A DNA stretch of 64,000 nt. Origin: Strix aluco. Its lineage: Eukaryota > Chordata > Aves > Strigiformes > Strigidae. This document shows, one piece after another, positions 7,196 to 22,916 of the stretch. Location: contig NC_133954.1 in NCBI RefSeq assembly GCF_031877795.1, positions 8,523,256 to 8,587,255 on the forward strand. Direction: 5' to 3'. Below the pieces are notes generated by a model. That model was not told where the DNA came from and searched no databases. It saw nothing but the letters and a program-made list of their open reading frames with translations. Each line of letters opens with the position of its first letter. The stretch's first letter is position 1. A program made the position numbers and the translations under genes.

Positions 7196-10100
7196 CTAGT
7201 CGTGGACCCACGGGCAGATGTCGGGTTTGGTTTCCGTCCCACCTCTGCCTCCATCGTGGGGGCTCGCCCCAGCCCTGCCCTGCCCGCGGAGGGTCGGGGT
7301 GAGATCCACGCTCTGCACCTCCTGCGGACACACCTCGGAGGTTTTCCTTGGGTCTGTGCTGGTCTTGTCAGATGCTGGCGGAGCCTTTTCTGCTTCCCAG
7401 GGACAAACCTCGGCTACGGTAGCGCTTGGGCTGGGGCCGCTGCCAGCCGCAGGAGCTGTGCTCCCTCCCTGAGGCTCTGCCCTGGGGCCCCACGAGGGCT
7501 CAGTGCCTGGCAGGATGCGGCACAGGGGCTTGTGCTCAGCCTTGCAGTCAGATCCGCCCTTGGATTCTTTCAGCAGAGCTGTTGCAGACACAGGGCTGGC
7601 TCCTGCCGCCACTTTTGACTTTCCCGGCGCGGTGGGAGATGCTCCATCAGCTCCCAGTGGGTGCACGCCTGGTTTGCCGCTTTCCTTTGCCAAGATGGTG
7701 GGTTCTGCTACTTCCCAGGGGCAAATATCAGACTTCTTGGATGGCTCTTCCCCTGTTGCAGCTTTCAGGGAGAGCTCCTCCATGCCTGGGCTCTCCCAGG
7801 AGCAGATGGCCTTGTGCCCACTGCTCCCCTGCTCCGGTGCGTTGGAGGCACCCACTTCTTTTGGTGGGAGGCTCGCCTTGCCCGCGGCTGCTCCTTTTTC
7901 CAGCAGAGGTGCAGCCACTTCCCAGAGGCAGATTTCTGCTTTATCACTGGACTCGACATCCTGAGCCTCCCAAGGACAGACCTCTGCCTTCAGGTTCTCT
8001 GCGCTCTGGGATTTACTTGAAGGTGATTTGGGCAGCGCTGGGCTCCCAGCGTGGGGTTTTTCTGGGGGCAGCTCCATGCCCAGGCTATCCCGGGGACAAA
8101 TGGACTCACGGTCTCTGCTTGCTTTCTCCTTTCCAGACAAGCTGCCTACAATCTTTTTGCGGAGACCTTGACCTGTAGAAGGGCTTTTGCTCACTATGGA
8201 CAAAGCATCTTTGTCCTGTCTTGATTTCTCTTTCATTGATGGTGAAGCAGCCGCCTCCCAGGGGCAGATTTCTGCTTTATCGGTGGTTTCAAGCTCCCAA
8301 GGACAGACCCCTGCCTTCAGGTTCTCTGCACTCTGGGATTTCCTCGAAGGTGATTTGGGCAGCGCTGGGCTCCCAGAACGGGGTTTTTCTGGGGGCAGCT
8401 CCATGACCAGGCTGTCCCGGGGACAGACGGATTCATGGTCTCTGCTTGATTTCTCCTTCTTTCCAGACAAGCTGCCTACAATCTTCTTGCGGAGACCTTG
8501 ACCTGTAGAGGGGCTTTTGCTCACTATGGACGAAGCATCTTTGTCCTGTCTTGATTTCTCTTTAGTGGATGGTGAAGCAGCCACCTCCCAGGGGCAGATT
8601 TCTGCTTTATCGGTGGTTTCAAGCTCCCAAGGACAGACCTCTGCCTTCAGGCTCTCTGCGCTCTGGGATTTACTCGAAGGTGATTTGGGCAGCGCTGGGC
8701 TCCCGGAACGGGGTTTTTCTGGAGGCTGCTCCATGCCCAGGCTCTCCTGGGAACAGACGGACTCACGGTCTCTGCTTGATTTCTCCTTCTTTCCAGACAT
8801 GCTGTCTATAATCTTCTTGCGGAGACTTTGACCTGTAGAAGAGCTTTTGCTCACTATGGACGAAGCATCTTTGTCCTGTCTTGATTTCTCTTTAGTGGAT
8901 CTTGAAGCAGCCGCCTCCCAGGGGCAGATTTCTGCTTTGTTAGTGGATTCCAGCTTCTGAGCCTCCCAAGGACAGACCTCTGCCTTCAGGCTCTCTGCGC
9001 TCTGGGATTTCTTTGAAGGTGATTTGGGCAGCGCTGGGCTCCCAGAACGGGGCTTTTCTGGGGGCAGCTCCGTGTCCAGGCTCTCCTGGGGACAAACGGC
9101 CTCTCGCTCGCTGCTGCCCATCTCCGGGGATCTCACCGGGCTGGCTAACGCTGCCTGGCGTGTGATGCACTTGTCCCCCTTTGAATCCCCCCCAGGACCC
9201 TGCTTGGCCTTTTGCTGATCAGAGGGAGTTGCAGCTGCCTCCCAGGGGCAGATTTCTGCTTTGTTAGTGGATTCCAGCTCCTGAGCCTCCCAAGGACAGA
9301 CCTCTGCCTTCAGGCTCTCTGTGCTCTGGGATTTACTCAAAGGTGATTTGGGCAGCGCTGGGCTCCCGGAATGGGGCTTTTCTGGGGGCAGCTCCGTGCC
9401 CAGGCTCTCCTGGGGGTGGACATTGACCTTTGCTCTCCCCATGCTCTCCCATTTCTTGACGGTGGCTTTCAGCAGCTGCAGGCTCCTCGTGCTGTACCCC
9501 GTGGAGGAGCCCTCCACGTCTGTGCTCTCCCAGGGACAGACGGACTCACGGTCTCTGCTTGATTTCTCCTTCTTTCCAGACGTGCTGTCTATAATCTTCT
9601 TGCGGAGACTTTGACCTGTAGAAGAGCTTTTGCTCACTATGGACGAAGCATCTTTATCCTGTCTTGATTTCTCTTTAGTGGATGGTGAAGCAGCCGCCTC
9701 CCAGGGGCAGATTTCTGCTTTGTTAGTGGATTCCAGCTTCTGAGCCTCCCAAGGACAGACCTCTGCCTTCAGGCTCTCTGTGCTCTGGGATTTCTTTGAA
9801 GGTGATTTGGGCAGCGCTGGGCTCCCAGAACGGGGCTTTTCTGGGGGCAGCTCTGTGTCCAGGCTCTCCTGGGGACAAATGGCCTCTCGCTCGCTGCTGC
9901 CCTTCTCTGGGGATCTCACCGGGCTGGCTAACGCTGCCTGGCGTGTGATGTGCTTGTCTCCCTTTGAACCCCCCCCAGGACCCTGCTTGGCCTTTTGCTG
10001 ATCAGAGGGAGTTGGAGCTGCCTCCCAGGGGCAGATTTCTGCTTTATCAGTGGTTTCAGGCTCCCAAGGACAGACCTCTGCCTTCAGGCTCTCTGTGGTC

Positions 10101-13100
10101 TGGGATTTCTTTGAAGGTGATTTGGGCAGCGCTGGGCTCCCGGAATGGGGCTTTTCTGGGGGCAGCTCCGTGCCCAGGCTCTCCTGGGGGTGGACATTGA
10201 CCTTTGCTCTCCCCATGCTCTCCCATTTCTTGACGGTGGCTTTCAGCAGCTGCAGGCTCCTCGTGCTGTACCCCGTGGAGGAGCCCTCCATGTCTGTGCT
10301 CTCCCAGGGACAGACGGACTCACGGTCTCTGCTTGATTTCTCCTTCTTTCCAGACGTGCTGTCTATAATCTTTTTGCGGAGACTTTGACCTGTAGAAGAG
10401 CTTTTGCTCACTATGGACGAAGCATCTTTATCCTGTCTTGATTTCTCTTTAGTGGATGGTGAAGCAGCCGCCTCCCAGGGGCAGATTTCTGCTTTATCAG
10501 TGGATTCCAGCTCCTGAGCCTCCCAAGGACAGACCTCTGCCTTCAGGCTCTCTGTGCTCTGGGATTTACTCGAAGGTGATTTGGGCAGCGCTGGGCTCCC
10601 AGAACGGGGTTTTTCTGGAGGCTGCTCCATGCCCAGGCTCTCCTGGGAACAGATGGACTCACGGTCTCTGCTTGATTTCTCCTTCTTTCCAGACATGCTG
10701 TCTACAGTCTTCTTGCGGAGACCTTGACCTGTAGAAGAGCTTTTGCTCACTATGGACGAAGCATCTTTGTCCTGTCTTGATTTCTCTTTAGTGGATGGTG
10801 AAGCAGCCGCCTCCCAGGGGCAGATTTCTGCTTTATCGGTGGTTTCAAGCTCCCAAGGACAGACCTCTGCCTTCTGGCTCTCTGCGCTCTGGGATTTCTT
10901 TGAAGGTGATTTGGGCAGCGCTGGGCTCCCAGAACGGGGCTTTTCTGGGGGCAGCTCCGTGTCCAGGCTCTCCTGGGGACAAACGGCCTCTCGCTCGCTG
11001 CTGCCCATCTCCGGGGATCTCACCGGGCTGGCTAACGCTGCCTGGCGTGTGATGCGCTTGTCTCCCTTTGAACCCCCCCCAGGACCCTGCTTGGCCTTTT
11101 GCTGATCAGAGGGAGTTGGAGCTGCCTCCCAGGGGCAGATTTCTGCTTTGTTAGTGGATTCCAGCTCCTGAGCCTCCCAAGGACAGACCTCTGCCTTCAG
11201 GCTCTCTGTGCTCTGGGATTTACTCAAAGGTGATTTGGGCAGCGCTGGGCTCCCGGAATGGGGCTTTTCTGGGGGCAGCTCCGTGCCCAGGCTCTCCTGG
11301 GGGTGGACATTGACCTTTGCTCTCCCCATGCTCTCCCATTTCTTGACGGTGGCTTTCAGCAGCTGCAGGCTCCTCGTGCTGTACCCCGTGGAGGAGCCCT
11401 CCACGTCTGTGCTCTCCCAGGGACAGACGGACTCACGGTCTCTGCTTGATTTCTCCTTCTTTCCAGACGTGCTGTCTATAATCTTCTTGCGGAGACCTTG
11501 ACCTGTAGAGGGGCTTTTGCTCACTATGGACGAAGCATCTTTATCCTGTCTTGATTTCTCTTTAGTGGATGGTGAAGCAGCCGCCTCCCAGGGGCAGATT
11601 TCTGCTTTATCAGTGGTTTCAATCTCCCAAGGACAGACCTCTGCCTTCTGGCTCTCTGCGCTCTGGGATTTCTTTGAAGGTGATTTGGGCAGCGCTGGGC
11701 TCCCGGAACGGGGCTTTTCTGGGGGCAGCTCTGTGCCCAGGCTCTCCTGGGGACAGACCTTTATGCTCTCCACATTCTCAGGTTTCTTGGCCTCAGCTTT
11801 TGACCTCTCAAGGCTTTTCTCAGTGAGCTTTTCAAAGATCCTGATGTCTGTGTGCTCTGACTGAGAGCCACCCATCTCTGCCAGGTTTGCTTTGATATCT
11901 TCAGGTCCTCTGGATCCTGGTTTATTTTCCCCTTCGGAAGTCCCACATGTGTCCTGACTTGGTCTCTCCTTCCCTGAAGGAGTTGCAGGCTCTTCCCAGG
12001 GGCAGATTTGTGTTTTAGCAAGTGGCGCGTGCCCCACTTCCCATGGACAAATGTTGGCCTTTTTGCTATCGGTGGTTCCTGCTTGCTTGGATGATGCTGT
12101 GGGCAGAGCTCGGAGTTTTGCTGCGAGTCCCGTGCTGGGCTGCTTCGCACCTTCTCTAGGGCGGGGGGATCCCCTCTGGCTGCTCCCCTTGTCTGCAGCT
12201 GGTGCCATCTCCCCTGTGCCCCTCGAGGCCACTCTCTGCAGGGAAATCCCTTTCTTCACTTGGGAAATTTTACCATCATCTAATTTTCCTGCATCAGGTA
12301 AAGTTCCCCTTTCCCAAGGGCAGACTTGTGCATCGCTGTCAGCTCCCGCCGCTTCCCAGGGACAAACCAAAGCCCGTGAGCTCCTCCAGGTCACTTCTGA
12401 CAGCTCAAAGCTTTTGGGAGCAGGTTTTGGAGGGGATTCCTTGCTGCTGGCGCTGCCCCAGGGCTGGCTGGGTGCTTGCAGGCTGCTCCTGCTCTCCTGC
12501 GCTGTCAGCAAACCCACTGAATTTGGTCTGATGTTCTTGTCCTGCTTGGGCAGCTGCCTCCGCTCTCCCTCCGGCTTCTCTTGCTGCTGCTGAGCCCTCT
12601 CCCTGTCCCAGGGGCAGATTTCTGCGCTGAGGGTCCTTCCCCCTTCCCCAGTGTCCCACAGACAAACCTCAGCCCTGCTGCCCTCCACGCGTTCTGCTTT
12701 TTCCCCAGCCCCTTGCAGCAGCTCTGGGGTTTTGGCTCGTGGTTTCTCCGCACCCAGCTCTTCCCTGGGGCGACCAGGATCCTCCTCACTGCCGCCCTTC
12801 CCTGGGGCTCTGCCCGGCCCCCAGTGCTCGCCCCCACTTTCATCCCGGGGGCAGATTTCTATTTTAATGCTGGAATCTGCCTGGGTTTCCCCAGAACAGA
12901 GCTCTGCCTGTCTGCCCACCGCCGTGCCGGCTTTCCCTGCTGCAACCGGGGCCGTCTCCGCACTCCGGCTTCTTGGGGAGACCCTCTCGGTGTCCCGGTT
13001 CTCCCCAGGACTGAGGGACTCGGGCTGGCTGCCCCCCTTCTCCAGTGCCGTGGTCGGGCTCTCCTCACTTGGTAGGACCCCGGTGTCCTCCCGGGAAGAA

Positions 13101-15175
13101 ACAGCCCCTTGGCGCAACAAGGCTCCTCTTCCTGCTGGGACACCTGGGGCCCCCCGGGGACGAACCGCAGCCCCCGGTTTCTCGGTGGCCGCTCTCTGCG
13201 CGCCGGTGGAGGACGGGTCGGGGCTGCCTGCGATGGGTTCGGCATGTGGCTGCTGCACCTCGGCACCGTCCTGGGGGTGGATGGACCTGCTGGCCCCATC
13301 GAGCCCTTCGGCTGGCCTGGCCACCCCTTCCTTCGGTGTGATCGGCCTCACGCTGGCTGCGGGAGCATCCTTCCCTGGCTCCGTCACGGCAGGCTCGGCC
13401 CCTTCCCAGGGCTGGACCGGTGCCTTCCCGCTGCTGCTGGCCACCGCTGGCGTTTCCTGGGGCTCTTCAGCTCCTTCTTGGTGGCTGATGCTGGGTGGGA
13501 TCTCACACACCCCCGAGGGTGACCCCAGGCCCCCGCCAGCAGCTGCGTCCCCCCGGGAAGCGCTGGGCTCTTCTGCCCGTTTCTCACCATCGCTTGTCCC
13601 CGGGGCCGGGCTGTCCCTCTGTCCTGCCCCGCCGCCCCCCCAGCCAGCGTTGTGCTGGCCGGGGACCGCATCCCCCTGCTCCCGGCGGGCAGGGGACTCG
13701 CTGCCGGGCCTCTGCCGGCTCCACTCAGGCCTTTTGGCGGTGGGGTCTTGGCCAACCCCCCCGAGGGACACGGCTGCTGTCTCTGCCAGGCTGGGCCTCT
13801 CCCTCCTTCTGCCCCCCTCCCGCTCGCACCCCCTCTTCCTGAGGCTCCCCTCGCCTTCACTCTTCACCTTCAGGATGCTTTTCCCCCTGAAGGCTTTGAC
13901 GGTGAGTCCCAGGTTCCGCAGGGAGGTCCTCTGGGAGGGCAGCTTGAGGCTGGGGGGGGCGGCTTCTGCCTCACGGGGGGTCCCCAAATCTGCTGCTTCA
14001 GTGGCTTTTTGCTTCCGGCTCAGAATCTCCTCCTGGACCAGCTCCCAGGGGCAGACCTGTGCCGGGATGGAGGCTGCGGCCAGCAGCCTGCCCTTCCTCG
14101 CCAGGGGGGACGTACGCCCCAGATCTTCCTCCGCAGACCCCTCCGCTGTCCTCTCTGGTTCTCCCACCCGTGCTGGGGGGTCTGGGGGTGGTTCTGGGGG
14201 GTCTGCGGGTGGCGCTGGGGGGTCTGCAGGTGGCTCCACCGGCTCCAGGCTGTGCCTGGCCGGCGCGGCACTATGCCCCAGGCTCTGGTAGCGCACAGGG
14301 GGTGGTGGGGGGGTCCTCCTCACCGCCAGCCGCACCCGCCCCCGGAGGTGGGAGCTGTCGATGCTGATGCTCTTGATGGGCGCGTAGGTGACGTGTTTCT
14401 GTACTTTGCCATCACCTAGGGGGGACGTGTCCTCCTGGAAGCCCCTCTCTGCGGGGCGGGAGCCAGCTGGTGCGAGGGCATCAGCTGCCCCCAGGCTTTG
14501 GGGCTTCCTGGCTTCCTTGGGGGGTCTGTGGCTCGTGCGGTGCCGCGATGGGTGCCGGTTGGGGTGCCCCGATGGGTGCCGGTTGGGGTGCCACTGGTCC
14601 CGTGCGGCTCGTCTGGCGGCGAGCAGGGCCTCTTCCCGCGCACCGGTGATGACGCTGAGCGATTTCTGCAAGGGGGCTGCGCAGGGCCGGAGGAGCTGCC
14701 CGTGCCCTGCCAAATTGTGGGCACTGGCCGACTTGCACACGAGCGGGGCGGTATCGAGGGACTCGCTGTCGGATTGCTCCAAGGCCGTCACCCCCATCGT
14801 CTTCCTCTCCAGCCCAGGTTTCCTGGTGGGGACAGGGGTGGGCGAGCTTCCCCGTGGCTCCTGCGCGGGACCCTCGGTGCTGCGGAACCTGCGCGAGGAT
14901 GCGATGCGGCGCCGGGAACCCTCGTCCCGCGTCCGCGGGCTGGCGCCGGTGGCTTCTGGGAACTGCTTGGCCGAGGAGCCGCGATGCACCGGGGTGGTGC
15001 CCCCCCGCCCCCCGCCACCGCTCCGGCGTGTCCCGGGCAGCTCGACGATGCGGCGTATGATGGAGCGGCCCAGGCTGCGGCGGGAGCTGTGCTTCTTGGG
15101 GAGGTGGGGGTTGTTGGCTGTCATCCTCCGCGTCTTGTGCACCTCCAGCTGCGCGTAAAGCTTCTTCAGCTCCTC
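7196..15175 (-). CDS. GPR179: GPR179 last coding exon: giant CPWE-repeat tail
   Basis: A 7980-nt exon open from the acceptor (CGCGCAG) to TAG at 7198-7196. It opens with [12 protein letters not shown] and NNPHLPKK, the RGS-binding coiled stretch of the family, then the conserved SASAHNL and LQKSLSV blocks and Pro- and Ser-rich linker. It then carries about 31 CPWE motifs plus variants (CPWD, CLWE, CSWE, CPQE) and ends ICPWVHD. Sequence outside the central array (7963-11757) is divergent between motifs; inside it the copies are nearly identical. Confidence 0.95.
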   Translation of the reverse strand, partial: EELKKLYAQLEVHKTRRMTANNPHLPKKHSSRRSLGRSIIRRIVELPGTRRSGGGGRGGTTPVHRGSSAKQFPEATGASPRTRDEGSRRRIASSRRFRSTEGPAQEPRGSSPTPVPTRKPGLERKTMGVTALEQSDSESLDTAPLVCKSASAHNLAGHGQLLRPCAAPLQKSLSVITGAREEALLAARRAARDQWHPNRHPSGHPNRHPSRHRTSHRPPKEARKPQSLGAADALAPAGSRPAERGFQEDTSPLGDGKVQKHVTYAPIKSISIDSSHLRGRVRLAVRRTPPPPPVRYQSLGHSAAPARHSLEPVEPPADPPAPPADPPEPPPDPPARVGEPERTAEGSAEEDLGRTSPLARKGRLLAAASIPAQVCPWELVQEEILSRKQKATEAADLGTPREAEAAPPSLKLPSQRTSLRNLGLTVKAFRGKSILKVKSEGEGSLRKRGCEREGGRRRERPSLAETAAVSLGGVGQDPTAKRPEWSRQRPGSESPARREQGDAVPGQHNAGWGGGGAGQRDSPAPGTSDGEKRAEEPSASRGDAAAGGGLGSPSGVCEIPPSISHQEGAEEPQETPAVASSSGKAPVQPWEGAEPAVTEPGKDAPAASVRPITPKEGVARPAEGLDGASRSIHPQDGAEVQQPHAEPIAGSPDPSSTGAQRAATEKPGAAVRPRGAPGVPAGRGALLRQGAVSSREDTGVLPSEESPTTALEKGGSQPESLSPGENRDTERVSPRSRSAETAPVAAGKAGTAVGRQAELCSGETQADSSIKIEICPRDESGGEHWGPGRAPGKGGSEEDPGRPREELGAEKPRAKTPELLQGAGEKAERVEGSRAEVCLWDTGEGGRTLSAEICPWDRERAQQQQEKPEGERRQLPKQDKNIRPNSVGLLTAQESRSSLQAPSQPWGSASSKESPPKPAPKSFELSEVTWRSSRALVCPWEAAGADSDAQVCPWERGTLPDAGKLDDGKISQVKKGISLQRVASRGTGEMAPAADKGSSQRGSPRPREGAKQPSTGLAAKLRALPTASSKQAGTTDSKKANICPWEVGHAPLAKTQICPWEEPATPSGKERPSQDTCGTSEGENKPGSRGPEDIKANLAEMGGSQSEHTDIRIFEKLTEKSLERSKAEAKKPENVESIKVCPQESLGTELPPEKPRSGSPALPKSPSKKSQSAESQKAEVCPWEIETTDKAEICPWEAAASPSTKEKSRQDKDASSIVSKSPSTGQGLRKKIIDSTSGKKEKSSRDRESVCPWESTDVEGSSTGYSTRSLQLLKATVKKWESMGRAKVNVHPQESLGTELPPEKPHSGSPALPKSPLSKSQSTESLKAEVCPWEAQELESTNKAEICPWEAAPTPSDQQKAKQGPGGGSKGDKRITRQAALASPVRSPEMGSSEREAVCPQESLDTELPPEKPRSGSPALPKSPSKKSQSAESQKAEVCPWELETTDKAEICPWEAAASPSTKEKSRQDKDASSIVSKSSSTGQGLRKKTVDSMSGKKEKSSRDRESICSQESLGMEQPPEKPRSGSPALPKSPSSKSQSTESLKAEVCPWEAQELESTDKAEICPWEAAASPSTKEKSRQDKDASSIVSKSSSTGQSLRKKIIDSTSGKKEKSSRDRESVCPWESTDMEGSSTGYSTRSLQLLKATVKKWESMGRAKVNVHPQESLGTELPPEKPHSGSPALPKSPSKKSQTTESLKAEVCPWEPETTDKAEICPWEAAPTPSDQQKAKQGPGGGSKGDKHITRQAALASPVRSPEKGSSEREAICPQESLDTELPPEKPRSGSPALPKSPSKKSQSTESLKAEVCPWEAQKLESTNKAEICPWEAAASPSTKEKSRQDKDASSIVSKSSSTGQSLRKKIIDSTSGKKEKSSRDRESVCPWESTDVEGSSTGYSTRSLQLLKATVKKWESMGRAKVNVHPQESLGTELPPEKPHSGSPALPKSPLSKSQSTESLKAEVCPWEAQELESTNKAEICPWEAAATPSDQQKAKQGPGGDSKGDKCITRQAALASPVRSPEMGSSEREAVCPQESLDTELPPEKPRSGSPALPKSPSKKSQSAESLKAEVCPWEAQKLESTNKAEICPWEAAASRSTKEKSRQDKDASSIVSKSSSTGQSLRKKIIDSMSGKKEKSSRDRESVCSQESLGMEQPPEKPRSGSPALPKSPSSKSQSAESLKAEVCPWELETTDKAEICPWEVAASPSTKEKSRQDKDASSIVSKSPSTGQGLRKKIVGSLSGKKEKSSRDHESVCPRDSLVMELPPEKPRSGSPALPKSPSRKSQSAENLKAGVCPWELETTDKAEICPWEAAASPSMKEKSRQDKDALSIVSKSPSTGQGLRKKIVGSLSGKEKASRDRESICPRDSLGMELPPEKPHAGSPALPKSPSSKSQSAENLKAEVCPWEAQDVESSDKAEICLWEVAAPLLEKGAAAGKASLPPKEVGASNAPEQGSSGHKAICSWESPGMEELSLKAATGEEPSKKSDICPWEVAEPTILAKESGKPGVHPLGADGASPTAPGKSKVAAGASPVSATALLKESKGGSDCKAEHKPLCRILPGTEPSWGPRAEPQGGSTAPAAGSGPSPSATVAEVCPWEAEKAPPASDKTSTDPRKTSEVCPQEVQSVDLTPTLRGQGRAGASPHDGGRGGTETKPDICPWVHD

Positions 15176-18100
15176 CTGCGCGCCGCGGGCGGGGGGACGC
15201 GGCAGAGAGAGGGGAGAGAGGAGAGCATGGACGATGGGACCCCACAGGGGCTGCGGCTGGGACGACCCTGCAAAGCCCCGGCTTGGCCCCTAGGGCCAGG
15301 CTGTCCCCGTGTCCGCAAGCCCCCGTGCTGCCTGTCCCTCCGACCCAGGGGGCGCAGCAGGTTCCCCCACCCCACAGGAGGTTCACCCTGCACCCCCTTC
15401 TCCTCCCCCCTTTTCGCTTTGCATCAGGAGAAAGATTGCAAAAGGCACCTCTTACTCTGCGCGGGGCTGCATAGCTAGCGTCAAAAGAAGGTCCTGAGTG
15501 TGCCACCCACCCGAATGTCATCGGGGTCGAGACTGTGCTCGCTCCAGGCGGACGCGATGCTGCTGTTGAGGCAGGAGCCCGAGCGCCGCATGTCCAGCTC
15601 GTCCTCATAGACCTCGGCCGCGATCTCCTCCCGCAGCGGCGAGCCGGCGTGCAGGAACTGGGGGTGGCGAGGGGCGAGCGAGCTCGAGGGGTCCCTGAAA
15701 CACCGGGAAACCCCAACCCTCGTCTCCCCGAGTCCCGGGGCTGAGCGTTACCTTTGGGATGAAGAGCAGCGCCAGGGTCATGGTGATGGTGCCGTGGGTG
15801 TGAGCGAAGAAGAGCAGCAGGGTCCAGTCAGGGTGCAGCGAGGGGACCATGACGAACCTAGAAAGGGCGAGAAGGGCAGCGCCGGGTCCCGCCGAGGTGC
15901 CTGCAGCCCCCTCCCCATCTCTGGACCCTGCGGCCTCCACCCTGCCCGGGGACCCACGCAGGGAACCTGCTGGCTTCAGGGATTCGCCACCGGTTCCTCT
16001 GCAGCACCAGGGATGGGAATTTCGGTTCCCAGCCCCATCGCAGCCCCTACCTGACCACGTGGAAGGCGGCAGAGATCATGAGCTCGTTGTGGAGCGCGAT
16101 GCCCATGTAGCGGGGCTCATGGAAGGCGGAGGGCACGGCGCGTGTGGCGTAGCACAGGAAGCTGCCCCACAGCAGGAACAACATTTCAGCTGTGGGAGAG
16201 AGCGGGGGAGCGGTGCTGAGCATCCAGCCCCATCGCCTGGCTGCCCTCAGTCTCTTTTCCTGGGTGACACAGATGGGTGCTGAGCTGCAGGGTGGGTGCT
16301 GCTGCCCGCTGGGACCTCCCTGCCTCAGGACGCATCCACAGCATCCAGCTGACATGCCGTGGTTGGAGCCGGTGCAGAGCATCATCCTCTGTCACAGCCG
16401 GCCCAAAGGCCACCAGGATTCACCCCCTGCGCCAGGCGATTGATCCCACGCCAGGGCAAGTCCTGGGGATGCTCAGAGGAGAGGGTGGGAGGCAGCTCGG
16501 GTGCCCCAGCCCTGCTTGCAGGCTCCAAGCAGGTTAAATGCAAAAGGAAATTAAAACCCTGCATTGAAGCACTGTGTTCAGTTTTGGGCCCCTCACTCCA
16601 AAAAGGCCATTGAATGACTCGAGCGTGTCCAGAGAAGGGCAACGGAGCTGGTGCAGGGTCTGGAGCACAGGTCTGATGGGGAGCGGCTGAGGGAACTGGG
16701 GGGGTTTAGTCCGGAGAAGAGGAGGCTGAGGGGAGACCTCCTGGCCCTCTGCAACTCCCTGAAAGGAGGGTGCAGAGAGGGGGGATGAGTCTCTTGAGCC
16801 AAGGACCCAGCGGCAGGCCAAGAGGGAATGGCCTCAAGCTGCGCCAGGGCAGGGTCAGACTGGCTCTTAGGAAGGATTTCTTTGCAGAAGGGGTTGTTGG
16901 GCGTTGGAATGGGCTGCCCAGGGCAGGGGGGGAGTCCCCATCCCTGGAGGGGTTGAAGAGTCGGGTTGACCCAGCGCTGAGGGATCTGGTGGAGTTGGGA
17001 ACGGTCAGGGTGAGGTTCATGCTTGGGCTGGAGGAGCTTCAGGGTCTTTTCCAACTGATTCTGGGATTCTGTGATTCTGTGACAGGATGGGGTCCTGGCG
17101 CTGTGGGGACCCCCAGGACACTGCGGGGGGTGGTCTCACCGATCACCATCATGTAGTCCCAGCGGTCATGGCCGCAGATGTAGAAATGGAGCCCGCGGGC
17201 GGTCTGGGTGCGGATCACCAGCGGGATGTTCTTGTCGATGTTTTCCAGCATCCCGATGGTCCAGGCCGCCAGGAACCACAGCACCAGGAGCAGGATCAAC
17301 CCCAGCATCTTCAGCACCCGCCCGCTCGACACATAGGGCACCCGCTGGGCCGTGCGGGACAGGAACACCTTCAGCACCCTGCGAGGGGCAGAGGGGTGAG
17401 CCCCCAGCCCGTCCCTGCTGCGGGGGTCCCAAGCATCCAGCTCCTCCCTTCCCACATCCCAACTACCTGTACAGCTTGAGGGTGATGGTGCCGTAGACGA
17501 TGGCGAAGCCGAGCATCCGCACCCAGCGCAGGACGATGCAGCGGAAGATGCTCGGCTTGAAGTACAGGATGAACACCTGGGGCGGTGGGAGAGAGGGGTC
17601 GGTGCGTGGCACAGGGCCAGATCCCGCCTGTCCGGGGGGGTGGTAAATTCCAGAGACTCGGAAACCACCTGCTCTGGGGCCAGCCCTGCTGCTGCCCTTC
17701 CCCCTTGGCTCTACAGCATCCGCTGCAGCTCTTGCGGGAGGGAGAGGGGATTTGGGCAGGGATTAATTCCCGCGGCCAGCGGGAGAAAAAGGATTCAGTT
17801 TCCTGAGAAGGTTTATACCGCAGCCACCGGGGGCTGTGCCAACAAAATTAACAATTAGGCAGAGTCGTGCCCGTGCCCTGCCTGGGGCCAGCTCGATGCC
17901 TTCGTCCAGGGGGCAGCCGGCCAGGCTGCAAATGTTCTTAAACCCTCACCCAGAGGTTTTTGGCGCTGGGGCCAGCTGGATACTCACGGGGAAGTAGAGG
18001 AGGAGGGACCCGAAGAGGATCGTCTCCAGGAGAACAACTCCCGACGCCCGGATCCTCTGCAGGGACAGAGGCGTGAGGGTGCAGCCGGGAGCCTCAGCCA

Positions 18101-21100
18101 GTGCCCAGAGGGGATGGAGCCAGGTCAGGGAGATCCCCCCCGCCCCCCCGGGCTGTCACATCCCCACCCCCGAGAGCCCCCCTGAGACCGCGGGGTTTGG
18201 GGGTGGGAGGGGAGCAGGGCAGGGGCTGAGGGGCAGAGGGGGAGGACCCGGGGCTGCCTTGCCTTGCTCTGTCGGAAGTGGTAGGAGACGAGCATGCTGA
18301 GGAAGACGGCCAGCATGCAGCAGGCCTGGCAGGAGAGGACGGCCGCCCGCAGCGCCCGGTCCTCCTGGATCAGGCAGGGCGCGTCGTCCTCGCAGGTGGC
18401 ACAGCCCCGGCGGCAGGGCCGGCACGCCAGCCGGGCCCCCCCCGCGCCTGGGGACAGAGCGATGGCGCGGTGAAACCCCCGTGTCCCGGCCGTGGTGGCT
18501 CTTTCCTTGCCGCGGCATGTGTTTGGGCTTCCCAAAGCCGCCCCCCTCCCAGCCCCAGATCCCACTGCTGGAGCCACAGCTGGGTGAAATGGGGACCCCG
18601 GGGCCAGGCACGGCACCCACCTGCCCAGGCACCGCTGGCCGCTCCACTGGCCCTGTAAAAACCCGGCTTGCACCGGCACAGGTACCTCCCGAGGATGAAG
18701 TCGTGGCTTTCCTGGGGAACACACTGAAGGAGACAGGCTGAGACACACGGAAGGGCGAGGGCTCATCCTACACCCCATCTGCTCCCCCCTCCCTGCACCA
18801 AGGGCTCCGGCAGCCCCCGGGCTCGCGGGTACCTGACCCCACACCATCCTCCCCCTGTGCCCAGGAGGAATCGGTGGTTAAACATTTAAGAATTAAAAGC
18901 CAAAGCCTGGGCCCCCAAATCCCTCCCTAAAACCTAAATGGACACCTAATGCAGCAGAGCGCACTAATCCTGCCCGGCTGTGACGGCAGCGGCGGGCTGG
19001 GCACTGCTGCCCTAATCCCCCCGCGGCCGGATCCTGCCCTGAACTGGCAGCTTTTCTGGGTATTGTTTTTTTCTGGAGAGATGCCGGGTGGCAGAGCCCG
19101 TCCCTCCGGAGGGCAGGAAAGAGAAGCTGGTGACGCTTTTCCCGCTTGGGGACAGCTTTTTGCCTTCGGGGTGGGACCCTGAGCCGCACAGGGCTGGGGG
19201 GCTGCGGGGTTTGCCCTGGTTGGGGGACGGTGCAGGTTGGGCCGAGCCCTGAAACGCGCTCGGACATCACCGGCTCCTTGGGTGGGCACCGCCGGGGGGG
19301 GTCGGGGGCTGCTGGTTGGGGTGATTCGCCCCCCCCCGCCCCAGCTGCCAGCCCTCAGCCCCCGGCCGTGGCTGCGGTTCCCCAGGCAGGGAGCAGCGGG
19401 GTCACACGCTGCGGTAGAGAAGGAAGATTTGCACAATAAACCCCTCGGCTGCATCGCCGAGAGCAGCTGAACGAAGCAGATGGATCGGCCGGGAGAGGAT
19501 AAAGCTCAGCCCGGAGGGGAGGGACACGCGACACGGACAGCCCAGCTGGGGGGACGGGGGACGGTTGGGTGCTGGGGACCCCCAGCCCTGTGGGACGGGG
19601 AGGTAGGGGTGCAGGGTGCTGGTGGCCGGTACCTGGGTGCTGTTGAGGTCGCAGTGGTGTGTGTCCGCAAACCAGCCCGGCCCGCTGGCGCACTGGTCGA
19701 TGGCCACGTCCCGCAGCTCGACGTCCAGGCGCACGACGCCCCTGTGCAGAGGGACGGGGTCAGCCCCCAGAGGGGCTGTGGGGGGGACTCTCTGTGCCCC
19801 CCACCCAGTGTGGCCATGCCCCCCCTCTGGATGCAGCCACGGGGCGGGGGGTGGCTGGTGCTGGTTCATGGACAAGGGGGACAATGCGAGGTGTGGGCAG
19901 CATCCCCTGGACCCCCGCTCAGGGATGTGCCCCCCCCCCCCCCTCCTGAGCTGTGTCTGGGGGAGGTTGGAGCTGGGGCAGGGGCAGGGGCAGCAGCTCC
20001 TGGGGGTGAATTTGGCCTCTCAAGCAGCTTTAATGCAACCGATGGGGAAACAGGAGCTGCTGGGGTGGCCCCTGCGTGCTGCCCCTCACCCAACGGGCCC
20101 AACCCTCTTCCCTGGGTGCACCCCGGCTCCCCCCTTGGAAATGGGGCCATGTCCCCTCGCTGGGACCAACCCCAGCTGCCCCCTTCCCTCCCCAGTGCCA
20201 CCCACCGTGGCTCCTTGTGCTGGGGTGCAGCAGGGACCCACTAGCCCACGGACACCCTGCAGCTCCCAGGGTCGTGGGGGGGGGTCCAGCCCAGCTCACC
20301 CACCCCCCAGCTTGGCTGTGGCCGGGGGGCCTCTGGGGGTGGCAGCCCGAGGTGGGCAGCACAAGGACGACCGAGGGGGCGGGGGGGGGACGACAGGGGT
20401 CAGCTCCGTGCCTGTGGACGTGCAGATACCCACGAGCACACACGCGTTGGGGACACGGGTAGGGTGCTGGCACACACCACACTGCCTGCACCCCAGGGTG
20501 ATGCCTCCAGCTGCACCCCCCAACATGCACACGGGGCACCCCCCCCCCCCAGCCCCCTTACACCCCCCAGCCCCTCTGGGTGCCACTTACTTGAACTCAG
20601 GGCTGAGGTCTGGCTTGAGCCCGTAGAAAGCGGAGGAGAGCGTGACTGCCCAGGCGGGAAGGAACTTGCCATCCCGGCACTCAAGGAATGGGGGGGACCA
20701 CCGCACGTGGTCCGGGTCCCCCACGTAGCTGTCACCCCGCTGCCACTTGGGGGTCTCCATGCTGCGCAGGTCGTTGCTGAGCAGGCGCTTGCGGAGGAGG
20801 GGGGTCCGCTGCGACTTGAGGGCGTTGAACCACTCGTTGTCCCAGCTGAGGTTGCCGAGGCTGGGGGCAGCGGCGGAGATGTCCTGCAGCAGGATCTCGC
20901 CGTCCCCCTTGGTGGCCTGGAGCATCAGCCGGGGCTTGGCGGCCAGCGGGTGGGCGTCGAGGGCGAGCACCGCCCGGCGCACCCATGGGTGCCCCTCCAC
21001 CAGGCTGCGGACCAGCGCCTGGTACCACTCCACGTCCTCGGCCACGCTGGCCTCGCGGATGTCGTTGGTCTGGAAGAGCATGTTGAGGAAGTTGGCGGCG

Positions 21101-21417
21101 TGGGCCAGCGCCTCGGCGGCGGCATGCAGGGCGGCACGCAGCGCCAGGGGGGCGCCGGCACCGGGTGCCCCCACCACGACGCCCTGGCTGCAGTTGGCCC
21201 GGGCCAGTCGCTGTGTATCGCCCGTCTGCAGGAAAACCAGCGCCGCCGCCGAGCCCTCGGGGTCCCCCGACGATGCTCCCGGCTCCGGCGTGGGCACCCA
21301 CGAGGACAAGGGGCTCGGGGACCATCCTGTCACCCGGGGGGGCGTCTCCTGCGGGTGCTGGCCCCCGGCGAGGATGGTGCCAAGGACCAGCACCGCGTGC
21401 AAGCACCGCGGCCCCAT
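7196..21417 (-). CDS. GPR179: Orphan class C-like receptor GPR179, complete, 11 coding exons
   Basis: GPR179 is a postsynaptic receptor of retinal ON-bipolar dendrites. It anchors RGS7/RGS11 near the mGluR6-TRPM1 cascade and binds pikachurin; human loss causes complete congenital stationary night blindness (established). Exons in transcript order: 21417-20591, 19741-19633, 18723-18621, 18447-18263, 18056-17988, 17576-17467, 17378-17140, 16189-16051, 15857-15752, 15657-15511, 15175-7196. All joins keep frame: 10014 nt, 3337 residues. Order: signal peptide (about 1-20), Cache-type ectodomain with [13 protein letters not shown] and [12 protein letters not shown], Cys-rich EGF-like segment (about 285-345), seven membrane spans (about 375-630), then a roughly 2700-residue tail with [18 protein letters not shown] and about 31 CPWE motifs. 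Human GPR179 is 2367 residues; the excess is in the tail. One intron uses a GC donor. Confidence 0.96.
7963..11757 (-). repeat. In-frame tandem repeat array in GPR179 tail
   Basis: The core encoding [10 protein letters not shown] (plus-strand GGTGATTTGGGCAGCGCTG) starts at 8022, 8349, 8679, 9018, 9342, 9801, 10116, 10575, 10905, 11229 and 11679. The spacings are 327, 330, 339, 324, 459, 315, 459, 330, 324 and 450, all divisible by 3. The long units contain an extra module encoding [20 protein letters not shown], seen three times (9416, 10190 and 11303 as markers, spaced 774 and 1113). Copy-to-copy identity is high enough that assembly collapse or copy-number polymorphism is likely. Confidence 0.93.
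15511..15657 (-). CDS. GPR179: GPR179 coding exon 10: proximal tail
   Basis: 49 codons in phase 0 encoding [19 protein letters not shown] and [14 protein letters not shown], conserved in GPR158/GPR179. The donor is GTGGGT. Confidence 0.94.
15752..15857 (-). CDS. GPR179: GPR179 coding exon 9: TM7
   Basis: It encodes [19 protein letters not shown] and LALLFIPK, the seventh membrane span. The donor is GTAACG. Confidence 0.94.
16051..16189 (-). CDS. GPR179: GPR179 coding exon 8: TM5-TM6
   Basis: It encodes [20 protein letters not shown] and [17 protein letters not shown], near-identical to human. The donor is GTAGGG. Confidence 0.94.
16570..17084 (+). mobile_element. CR1 LINE 3' end in GPR179 intron 7
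   Basis: About 515 bases of CR1 3' sequence in the intron between GPR179 coding exons 7 and 8, antisense to the gene. It starts near TGTTCAGTTTTGGGCCCCTCA and ends with ATTCTGTGATTCTGTGA, the diagnostic 8-mer tail. It is 5' truncated, as CR1 copies usually are. From about 16749 it is almost identical to the copy at 1-328. Confidence 0.93.
17140..17378 (-). CDS. GPR179: GPR179 coding exon 7: TM4 and extracellular loop 2
   Basis: It encodes the hydrophobic [18 protein letters not shown] span and ends at [10 protein letters not shown]. The intron that follows (16190-17139) contains a CR1 insertion. Confidence 0.93.
17467..17576 (-). CDS. GPR179: GPR179 coding exon 6: TM2-TM3
   Basis: It encodes [13 protein letters not shown] and [16 protein letters not shown]. 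The donor is GTAGTT, a weak but GT-type site. Confidence 0.93.
17988..18056 (-). CDS. GPR179: GPR179 coding exon 5: TM2 start
   Basis: A 69-nt phase-0 exon encoding [16 protein letters not shown] and LLLYFP, strongly conserved with GPR158. The donor is GTGAGT. Confidence 0.94.
18263..18447 (-). CDS. GPR179: GPR179 coding exon 4: Cys-rich segment and TM1
   Basis: It encodes a CxxC-rich stretch, then [19 protein letters not shown], the first membrane span. The exon ends ...AGCAAG followed by GCAAGG, so the donor is GC rather than GT. No nearby GT donor would preserve the family alignment to RIRASG in exon 5. Confidence 0.88.
18621..18723 (-). CDS. GPR179: GPR179 coding exon 3: EGF-like segment
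   Basis: It encodes [15 protein letters not shown], a calcium-binding-EGF-like block. No ATG-initiated frame exists here; the exon is supported by the AG acceptor (TCCTTCAG), the GTGGGT donor and correct phase on both sides. Confidence 0.9.
18724..19632. other. GPR179 intron 2
   Basis: Non-coding by exon logic. It holds two TAATCC motifs at 18965-18970 and 19013-19018, the core recognised by OTX2/CRX. No exon-like conserved peptide was seen. Confidence 0.6.
19633..19741 (-). CDS. GPR179: GPR179 coding exon 2
   Basis: It encodes [18 protein letters not shown] and [10 protein letters not shown], conserved in GPR158 and GPR179 just before the EGF-like segment. The donor is GTACCG. Confidence 0.94.
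19742..20590. other. GPR179 intron 1
   Basis: A C-rich, low-complexity intron with several runs of more than ten C on the plus strand (for example around 19929-19945). No coding or RNA gene was seen. Confidence 0.7.
20591..21417 (-). CDS. GPR179: GPR179 coding exon 1: signal peptide and Cache ectodomain
   Basis: The start ATG is at 21415-21417 and is followed by a hydrophobic stretch of about 15 residues (signal peptide). The rest carries [41 protein letters not shown] and SPPFLEC, shared with human GPR179. The donor is GTAAGT at 20590-20585. Confidence 0.94.
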
Positions 21418-22240: not shown

Positions 22241-22545
22241 GAACAGTGCAGGAGCCATGCAAGAGCTGTGCCAGATCCGTGCCAGAGCCATGCAAGAGCT
22301 GTGCCAGATCCGTGCAAGAGCCGTGCAAGAGCTGTGAAAGAGCCGTGCAAGAGCTGTGCCAGATCTGTGCAAGAGCCATCCAAGAGCTGTGCAAGAGCTG
22401 TGCCAGAGCCGTGCAAAAGCCATGCAAGGGCCATGCAAGAGCCATGTAAGAGCCGTGCAAGAGCCGTGCAAGAGCTGTGCCAGAGCTGTGCAAAAGCCGT
22501 GCAAGAGCCGTGCAAGGGCCATGTACGAGCCGTGCCAGGGCCGTG
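22241..22545. repeat. 15-bp minisatellite between GPR179 and SOCS7
   Basis: About 20 imperfect copies of a 15-bp unit close to AGAGCCGTGCAAGAG / CTGTGCCAGAGCCGT. It translates without stops in several frames on both strands (CKSCARAV-like, or LARLLHGSC-like), which is why long spurious frames cross it. It ends about 390 bases before the SOCS7 ATG. Confidence 0.9.
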
Positions 22546-22916
22546 CCAGGGCTGCGCAGGCCCCGCAGTACGGAGCTGCCGTGTGCCCGTGCCTCAGTTT
22601 CCCGGGCCCACCCGCTGTCCGGGGGCCGGGCAGAGTCCCCTGGGCCCCGCCGTGTCTCCGTCCCCCCCGCCCCGCCCGTGGGTGCCGGGGGTCGCAGCGG
22701 GGCCCCAGGGCTGCGCTGCACGTGGCGGGGCGGGGGGCGAGGGGGAGGCGGAGCCTCGGCGCGGGGCGGAGCCGAGCGGGGGGGGGGCGTGTCCCGGACG
22801 GGGGCGGGGCCGGAAGTGCGGGGGCGGGGCGCGCGCGGCCGGCGCCGCGGAGGAGGGAGGAGCCGCGGCGGCGGCGCTGGGAGGGCGGCGGCGGCCCGGC
22901 CCGGTCCCGCTCCGCC

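What the first reader, a model, noticed from the sequence alone, without database searches (positions are those of the whole stretch)
7963..11757. Homogenised, frame-preserving CPWE repeat array makes this GPR179 about 1000 residues longer than human
Eleven copies of a core module are spaced 315-459 bases apart, and every spacing is a multiple of 3. Copies are nearly identical, including silent positions, while repeats outside the array are divergent. This points to recent unequal exchange or gene conversion under selection for an open frame. In GPR158/GPR179 the CPWE motifs are reported to engage the G-protein/RGS side of signalling, so array length could tune scaffold valency at the ON-bipolar synapse. 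The functional link is inference.
Basis: partly seen in the sequence, partly recalled or inferred. Interest (0 to 1): 0.72.

Follow-up and report, generated by a model that had tools for sequence, protein, structure and literature searches.

The report
Expanded repeat array in GPR179 tail
The intracellular tail of this retinal receptor gene (GPR179), probably from a bird, contains eleven copied modules that make the protein about 970 amino acids longer than the human one; the copies have been exchanging DNA with one another, and more copies may mean more docking sites for a signalling protein, which is untested.

Summary
An intact 11-exon GPR179 gene lies on the minus strand (window 21417-7196) and encodes 3337 residues, against 2367 in human. 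Its last exon carries eleven in-frame modules (11758-7808; residues 1818-3134) with 24 of the protein's 31 CPWE motifs.

"Nearly identical" needs refining. Two unrelated linker types (A, B) and a 120-bp insert (C) form a higher-order order: AC-B-A-AC-B-AC-B-A-A-A-edge. The 186-bp core is shared across linker types (91% DNA identity, A versus B) while A and B linkers are 44% identical. Module 5 is a mosaic with B flanks and an A-like centre. Exchange inside the core (conversion or crossovers) is well supported.

Selection for the open frame is not demonstrated: recent copies give omega 0.71-1.07. CPWE codons vary less in amino acid than the rest of the core (P=0.04).

Most likely function, inferred from GPR158 motifs reported to bind G-alpha-o: a disordered multivalent G-alpha tether near RGS7/11. 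Other birds and sequencing reads could not be examined.

The parts
7196..21417 (-). GPR179 gene, 11 coding exons: 21417-20591, 19741-19633, 18723-18621, 18447-18263, 18056-17988, 17576-17467, 17378-17140, 16189-16051, 15857-15752, 15657-15511, 15175-7196 (3337 aa; the start codon is inferred)
7196..15175 (-). Last coding exon (7980 nt) holding the intracellular tail with the array
7808..11758 (-). Repeat array of 11 modules M1-M11, residues 1818-3134, 24 of 31 CPWE
11309..11758 (-). Module M1, core + A linker + C insert
10985..11308 (-). Module M2, core + B linker
10655..10984 (-). Module M3, core + A linker
10196..10654 (-). Module M4, core + A linker + C insert
9881..10195 (-). Module M5, core + B linker; mosaic core
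10046..10114 (-). A-like tract inside M5 (alignment codons 28-53) with B-type sequence on both sides; exact ends uncertain
   Evidence: Against M2 and M7: no difference in the 51 positions of codons 1-17; 9 substitutions and a 9-nt gap in codons 18-61, 7 of the 9 substitutions matching A modules; 3 (M2) or 7 (M7) differences in codons 62-114, one of which also matches A modules
9422..9880 (-). Module M6, core + A linker + C insert
9098..9421 (-). Module M7, core + B linker
8759..9097 (-). Module M8, core + A linker
8429..8758 (-). Module M9, core + A linker
8102..8428 (-). Module M10, core + A linker
7808..8101 (-). Module M11, edge copy: core kept, linker not like A or B
11309..11428 (-). C insert copy 1 (begins with VCPWE)
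10196..10315 (-). C insert copy 2
9422..9541 (-). C insert copy 3; an 18-residue helix is predicted in it, with pLDDT 81 and 72 in the two blocks of ten residues
11120..11496 (-). 377-bp stretch repeated exactly at 9233-9609 (distance 1887)
9233..9609 (-). Second copy of the 377-bp exact repeat

Best explanation
This is the native CPWE-rich intracellular tail of a GPR179 orthologue, lengthened by duplication of blocks of modules and homogenised by non-allelic exchange whose breakpoints fall inside the shared 186-bp core (supported from sequence). The tail is mostly disordered (predicted, from one sequence). Each module presents two CPWE motifs 13 or 16 residues apart (the second is CLWE in M11), and three modules carry a third. 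Inferred mechanism: these motifs dock activated G-alpha-o, as reported for the VCPWE motifs of GPR158, beside the RGS7/11-Gbeta5 complex that the receptor's membrane-proximal coiled coil recruits, so the array acts as a multivalent tether that concentrates G-alpha-o next to its GTPase activator at ON-bipolar dendritic tips. The array beyond the motifs looks weakly constrained, so the exact copy number may be drift as much as adaptation.
For: Orthology and full gene model. Divergent relatives of the core upstream in the same tail at 27-30 bits, so the array grew from native modules. Cores alike across linker types that are unrelated: core A-B identity 0.908, linker A-B 0.438. Mosaic M5. 145 of 351 pairs of biallelic informative core sites show four gametes, and near neighbours are less often incompatible than in shuffled site orders, P=0.001 of 2000 shuffles. 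Block M1-M2-M3 versus M6-M7-M8 97.4% over 1104 compared positions. CPWE codons of the core: 1 of 10 columns vary in amino acid versus 24 of 52 other columns, Fisher P=0.04. Mean pLDDT 48.7 for M6-M7. GPR158 VCPWE motifs and G-alpha-o: review PMC9027133, passages. RGS7-contacting coiled coil conserved in GPR179: PMC8611064, passages.
Against: I saw no binding datum for GPR179's own motifs. Omega of recent copies, 0.71-1.07, is not distinguishable from neutrality. The motif constraint rests on one marginal P value, on columns I chose after seeing the modules. The disorder prediction used a single sequence. No other bird was compared, so the reach of the expansion is unknown.
Confidence: 0.55

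Rival explanations
1. Near-neutral expansion: a disordered tail tolerates in-frame duplication, and the module number has no particular effect on signalling.
For: Recent copies diverge with omega 0.71-1.07 and no significant synonymous excess; freedom from stops among recent changes is not significant. By composition the array and the rest of the tail are equally rich in disorder-promoting residues, 0.720 and 0.719.
Against: CPWE columns are less variable in amino acid than the rest of the core (P=0.04), and 21 of 22 core CPWE sites are intact.
Confidence: 0.3
2. Assembly artefact: modules duplicated or collapsed by the assembler, so the true number differs.
For: A 377-bp exact repeat exists, long enough to confuse short reads; no reads could be inspected.
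Against: Copies of one type differ by 1-10% and have their own order and indels; the assembly has 202 contigs and the window lies in a 10.63-Mb contig; 10 of 10 exact genome matches of a 19-bp core word lie in this array, so that word shows no second location. The frame is open throughout.
Confidence: 0.07
3. The motifs serve another partner, for example TRAF6, whose motif a GPR179 peptide EVCPWEVTE was noted to match.
For: Passage of preprint PMC11291154.
Against: By my own count on the modules printed, only 7 of 24 array CPWE copies (M2, M4, M7, M11 and the three C inserts) fit P-x-E-x-x-[FYWHDE], so the array does not keep that motif.
Confidence: 0.05

Closest known systems
Human GPR179 (structures 8irj, 8d1b; 2367 aa)
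   Same: Class C receptor with the same ectodomain, 7TM and membrane-proximal cytoplasmic part; 942-bit match over residues 35-736. Cache and EGF-like ectodomain of the family: PMC12716839, passages
   Different: This protein is 970 residues longer; the human tail was not available here, so its modules were not compared
GPR158 (mGlyR), VCPWE motifs reported to bind G-alpha-o
   Same: Paralogue with the same motif in its tail and the same receptor core (838 bits)
   Different: The review speaks of two conserved VCPWE motifs; here there are 31 CPWE
Coding tandem arrays under concerted evolution (recalled examples: involucrin, polyubiquitin, mucins)
   Same: In-frame tandem modules in one exon, divergent edge copy, mosaic copy
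   Different: Two unrelated linkers and an insert stay apart while only the motif-bearing core is shared between them

Membership tests
GPR179 orthologue | Receptor core closer to GPR179 than to GPR158 | tested here: met
   942.5 versus 838.5 bits
GPR179 orthologue | GPR158/179 extracellular domain | tested here: met
   PF22572 at 34.3 bits (cut-off 28.1), profile positions 1-38 of 96 in the exon 1 part
GPR179 orthologue | Intact coding gene with splice sites | tested here: met
   11 exons, one frame, one GC-AG intron
GPR179 orthologue | Expression in ON-bipolar cells | not testable with these tools
   No expression data
Array under concerted evolution | Array copies closer to each other than to other repeats of the gene, at silent sites too | tested here: met
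   true for cores and within a linker type, not for A against B linkers
Array under concerted evolution | Mosaic copies or recombination signal | tested here: met
Array under concerted evolution | Homogeneity within a species exceeds similarity between species | not testable with these tools
   No other bird sequence was reachable
Array under purifying selection on its reading frame | dN/dS below 1 among recent copies | tested here: inconclusive
   omega 0.71-1.07, P 0.22-0.64
GPR158-type G-alpha-o docking motif | VCPWE-like sequence | tested here: met
   31 CPWE; V or I precedes them in the list
GPR158-type G-alpha-o docking motif | Binding to activated G-alpha-o | not testable with these tools
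   Needs bench work

The most novel reading that the evidence does not exclude
The core is a fast-turnover, recombining cassette that lets GPR179 change its number of G-alpha-o docking doublets within and between bird species, with the helix-bearing C insert as a second kind of module, so that copy number is a heritable dial on the speed of ON-pathway signalling in bird vision.
Probability: 0.1. Interest if true: 0.75.

Novelty: new variant of a known kind. Interest (0 to 1): 0.4.

Why it matters
GPR179 loss causes complete stationary night blindness (PMC8122890, abstract start in the listing), and I found little about what its long tail does. A natural series of alleles or species in module number would allow the tail's docking role, so far inferred from GPR158, to be tested by dose, at a synapse whose signal is measurable by electroretinogram.

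Tried and rejected
Considered that the core similarity across A and B modules is only protein-level constraint: rejected, because silent divergence in cores is 0.17 while A and B linkers are unalignable. Considered uniform tandem duplication of one unit: rejected, because the linkers form a higher-order order and M5 is mosaic. Considered an inserted foreign satellite: rejected, because divergent relatives of the core lie upstream in the same tail. Pfam gave no family for the last exon at E up to 0.01 or 1. Rfam gave no match in the window at gathering thresholds. The C insert had no convincing solved relative (one match, E 0.11, an engineered repeat protein). The C insert weakly resembles the residues just before M1 (score 30, 2.35% of 2000 shuffles as good), which may mean that the ancestral module began with that helix; unproven. 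In the same call I scanned the rest of the tail after joining the two parts around the array; the top score, 33, falls at that same place but takes one residue from across my join, so I do not claim it as the best match. Clustering of invariant core codons was marginal (longest run P=0.058, transitions P=0.048).

Literature: nine searches. Searches found 0 papers. The listings were complete (6, 15, 2, 2 papers); those of 11, 18 and 30 showed 20 of 97, 20 of 34 and 8 of 19,582. No title or abstract start shown treats this array or bird GPR179 repeats; that is all I can say of print. Eight papers were seen as passages only: PMC6203450, PMC8611064, PMC9027133, PMC11291154, PMC3581496, PMC8122890, PMC13205639, PMC12716839.

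The gene model missed four residues at exon 3, seen from the alignment and corrected (3333 to 3337 aa).

Not achieved: comparison with GPR158 of the same genome and with other birds. The genome machine was busy; alone was answered.
Full report
What is there. The minus strand has one open frame of 2697 codons between 15289 and 7196. Its start matches the membrane-proximal cytoplasmic part of GPR158 and GPR179, and ten exons upstream complete the gene. My final model has 11 exons, 21417 to 7196, in one frame, with GT-AG introns except a GC-AG intron after exon 4, and encodes 3337 residues; the start codon is inferred. So it is a GPR179 orthologue. Human GPR179 has 2367 residues (passage of PMC13205639), so the excess is 970, equal to 8.1 mean modules. 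The own genome has 1.41 Gb in 202 contigs and the window lies in a 10.63-Mb contig, which would suit a bird microchromosome (recalled).

The array. Eleven modules lie at 11758-7808, residues 1818-3134, with 24 of 31 CPWE. Each has a 62-column core: a degenerate first motif (CPQE, CSQE or CPRD; H replaces C in M2, M5 and M7), then after 40 residues two CPWE motifs 13 or 16 residues apart, the second being CLWE in M11. The difference of three residues is a 9-nt indel. After the core comes linker A (M1, M3, M4, M6, M8, M9, M10), linker B (M2, M5, M7) or, in M11, an edge sequence like neither. M1, M4 and M6 also carry a 40-residue insert C with another VCPWE. The order is AC-B-A-AC-B-AC-B-A-A-A-edge. 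M1-M2-M3 and M6-M7-M8 are 97.4% identical over 1104 compared positions, and the array holds an exact repeat of 377 nt from M1-M2 to M6-M7. The three C inserts, of 120 nt, differ at one position.

How it arose. The core is 91% identical between A and B modules (dS 0.17), hardly less than among A modules (93%, dS 0.13), whereas A and B linkers are 44% identical, with silent sites saturated. M5 has no difference from M2 and M7 in 51 upstream positions, an A-like centre with 9 substitutions and a 9-nt gap, and a B-type linker with 3 (M2) or 7 (M7) differences. Seven of the 9 substitutions match A modules; two match none, the gap is placed one codon off the A gap in the alignment, no single A module is identical to the tract (the nearest, M1, differs by 3 substitutions), and one of the linker differences also matches A modules. 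Of 351 pairs of biallelic informative core sites 145 show all four combinations, and near neighbours are less often incompatible than in shuffled orders (P=0.001). Exchange inside the core is therefore well supported. Whether it was gene conversion or crossovers cannot be told. Upstream relatives of the core at 27-30 bits show that the array grew from modules native to the tail.

Selection. Four independent recent pairs (M1-M6, M2-M7, M3-M8, M9-M10) hold 43 changed codons, 36 with one change: 11 synonymous and 25 not. The 7 codons with two changes were left out of the test. Under twelve mutation models omega is 0.71-1.07 and the synonymous excess has P 0.22-0.64; the probability of no stop is 0.14-0.31. 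With the minimum of 74 substitutions over all modules it is 0.02-0.10. The two CPWE motifs of the core vary in amino acid at 1 of 10 columns against 24 of 52 others (P=0.04), but not significantly less at silent sites (1 of 10 against 13 of 52, P=0.43).

Artefact. A 19-bp core word has 10 exact matches in the own genome, all 10 in this array (the tool gives its counts as lower bounds). The copies differ in order, indels and substitutions. This speaks against a duplicated haplotype, but no reads were seen.

Function. The review PMC9027133 (passages) says that VCPWE motifs of GPR158 regulate its interaction with Go and that GPR158 traps G-alpha-o through them. PMC8611064 (passages) says that the coiled coil that recruits RGS7 is highly conserved in GPR179, and PMC6203450 (passages) places GPR179 with RGS7/11 on the postsynaptic side of the photoreceptor synapse. 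From these I infer a disordered multivalent tether for G-alpha-o beside its GTPase activator. Modules M6-M7, folded from one sequence without relatives, give mean pLDDT 48.7 and no secondary structure but one helix at residues 131-148, in the C insert (blocks of ten at 81 and 72). That helix is an unexplained second element; its hydrophobic moment ranks fifth to seventh among 62 proline- and glycine-free 18-residue windows of the tail.

Verdict. Real, well resolved and informative, but a lengthened repeat tail in a known gene. Its interest turns on whether module number varies among birds, which I could not test.

Noticed in passing
window 22246-22546: About 27 copies of an 11-bp tandem repeat (GTGCAAGAGCC) upstream of the GPR179 start. 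A plus-strand frame beyond it looks like the start of SOCS7 (recalled); Pfam showed only one match for that frame, far below its cut-off.
   Followed up: partly
window 16618-16788: In the intron between GPR179 exons 7 and 8 a plus-strand frame resembles the end of a CR1 LINE (recalled), an element common in birds and reptiles; Pfam gave no match for the frame.
   Followed up: partly
window 18263: The intron after GPR179 exon 4 appears to use a GC-AG splice site (aag|gcaagg).
   Followed up: partly
window 9422-9541, 10196-10315, 11309-11428: The C insert is the most uniform part of the array (one difference in three copies) and a short helix is predicted in the copy that was folded; it weakly resembles the residues just before module M1.
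   Followed up: partly
window 7808-11758: The array is poorer in GC (0.562) and CpG (observed/expected 0.36) than the rest of the same exon (GC 0.658 and 0.632, CpG 0.53 and 0.44), contrary to what GC-biased conversion would give.
   Followed up: no
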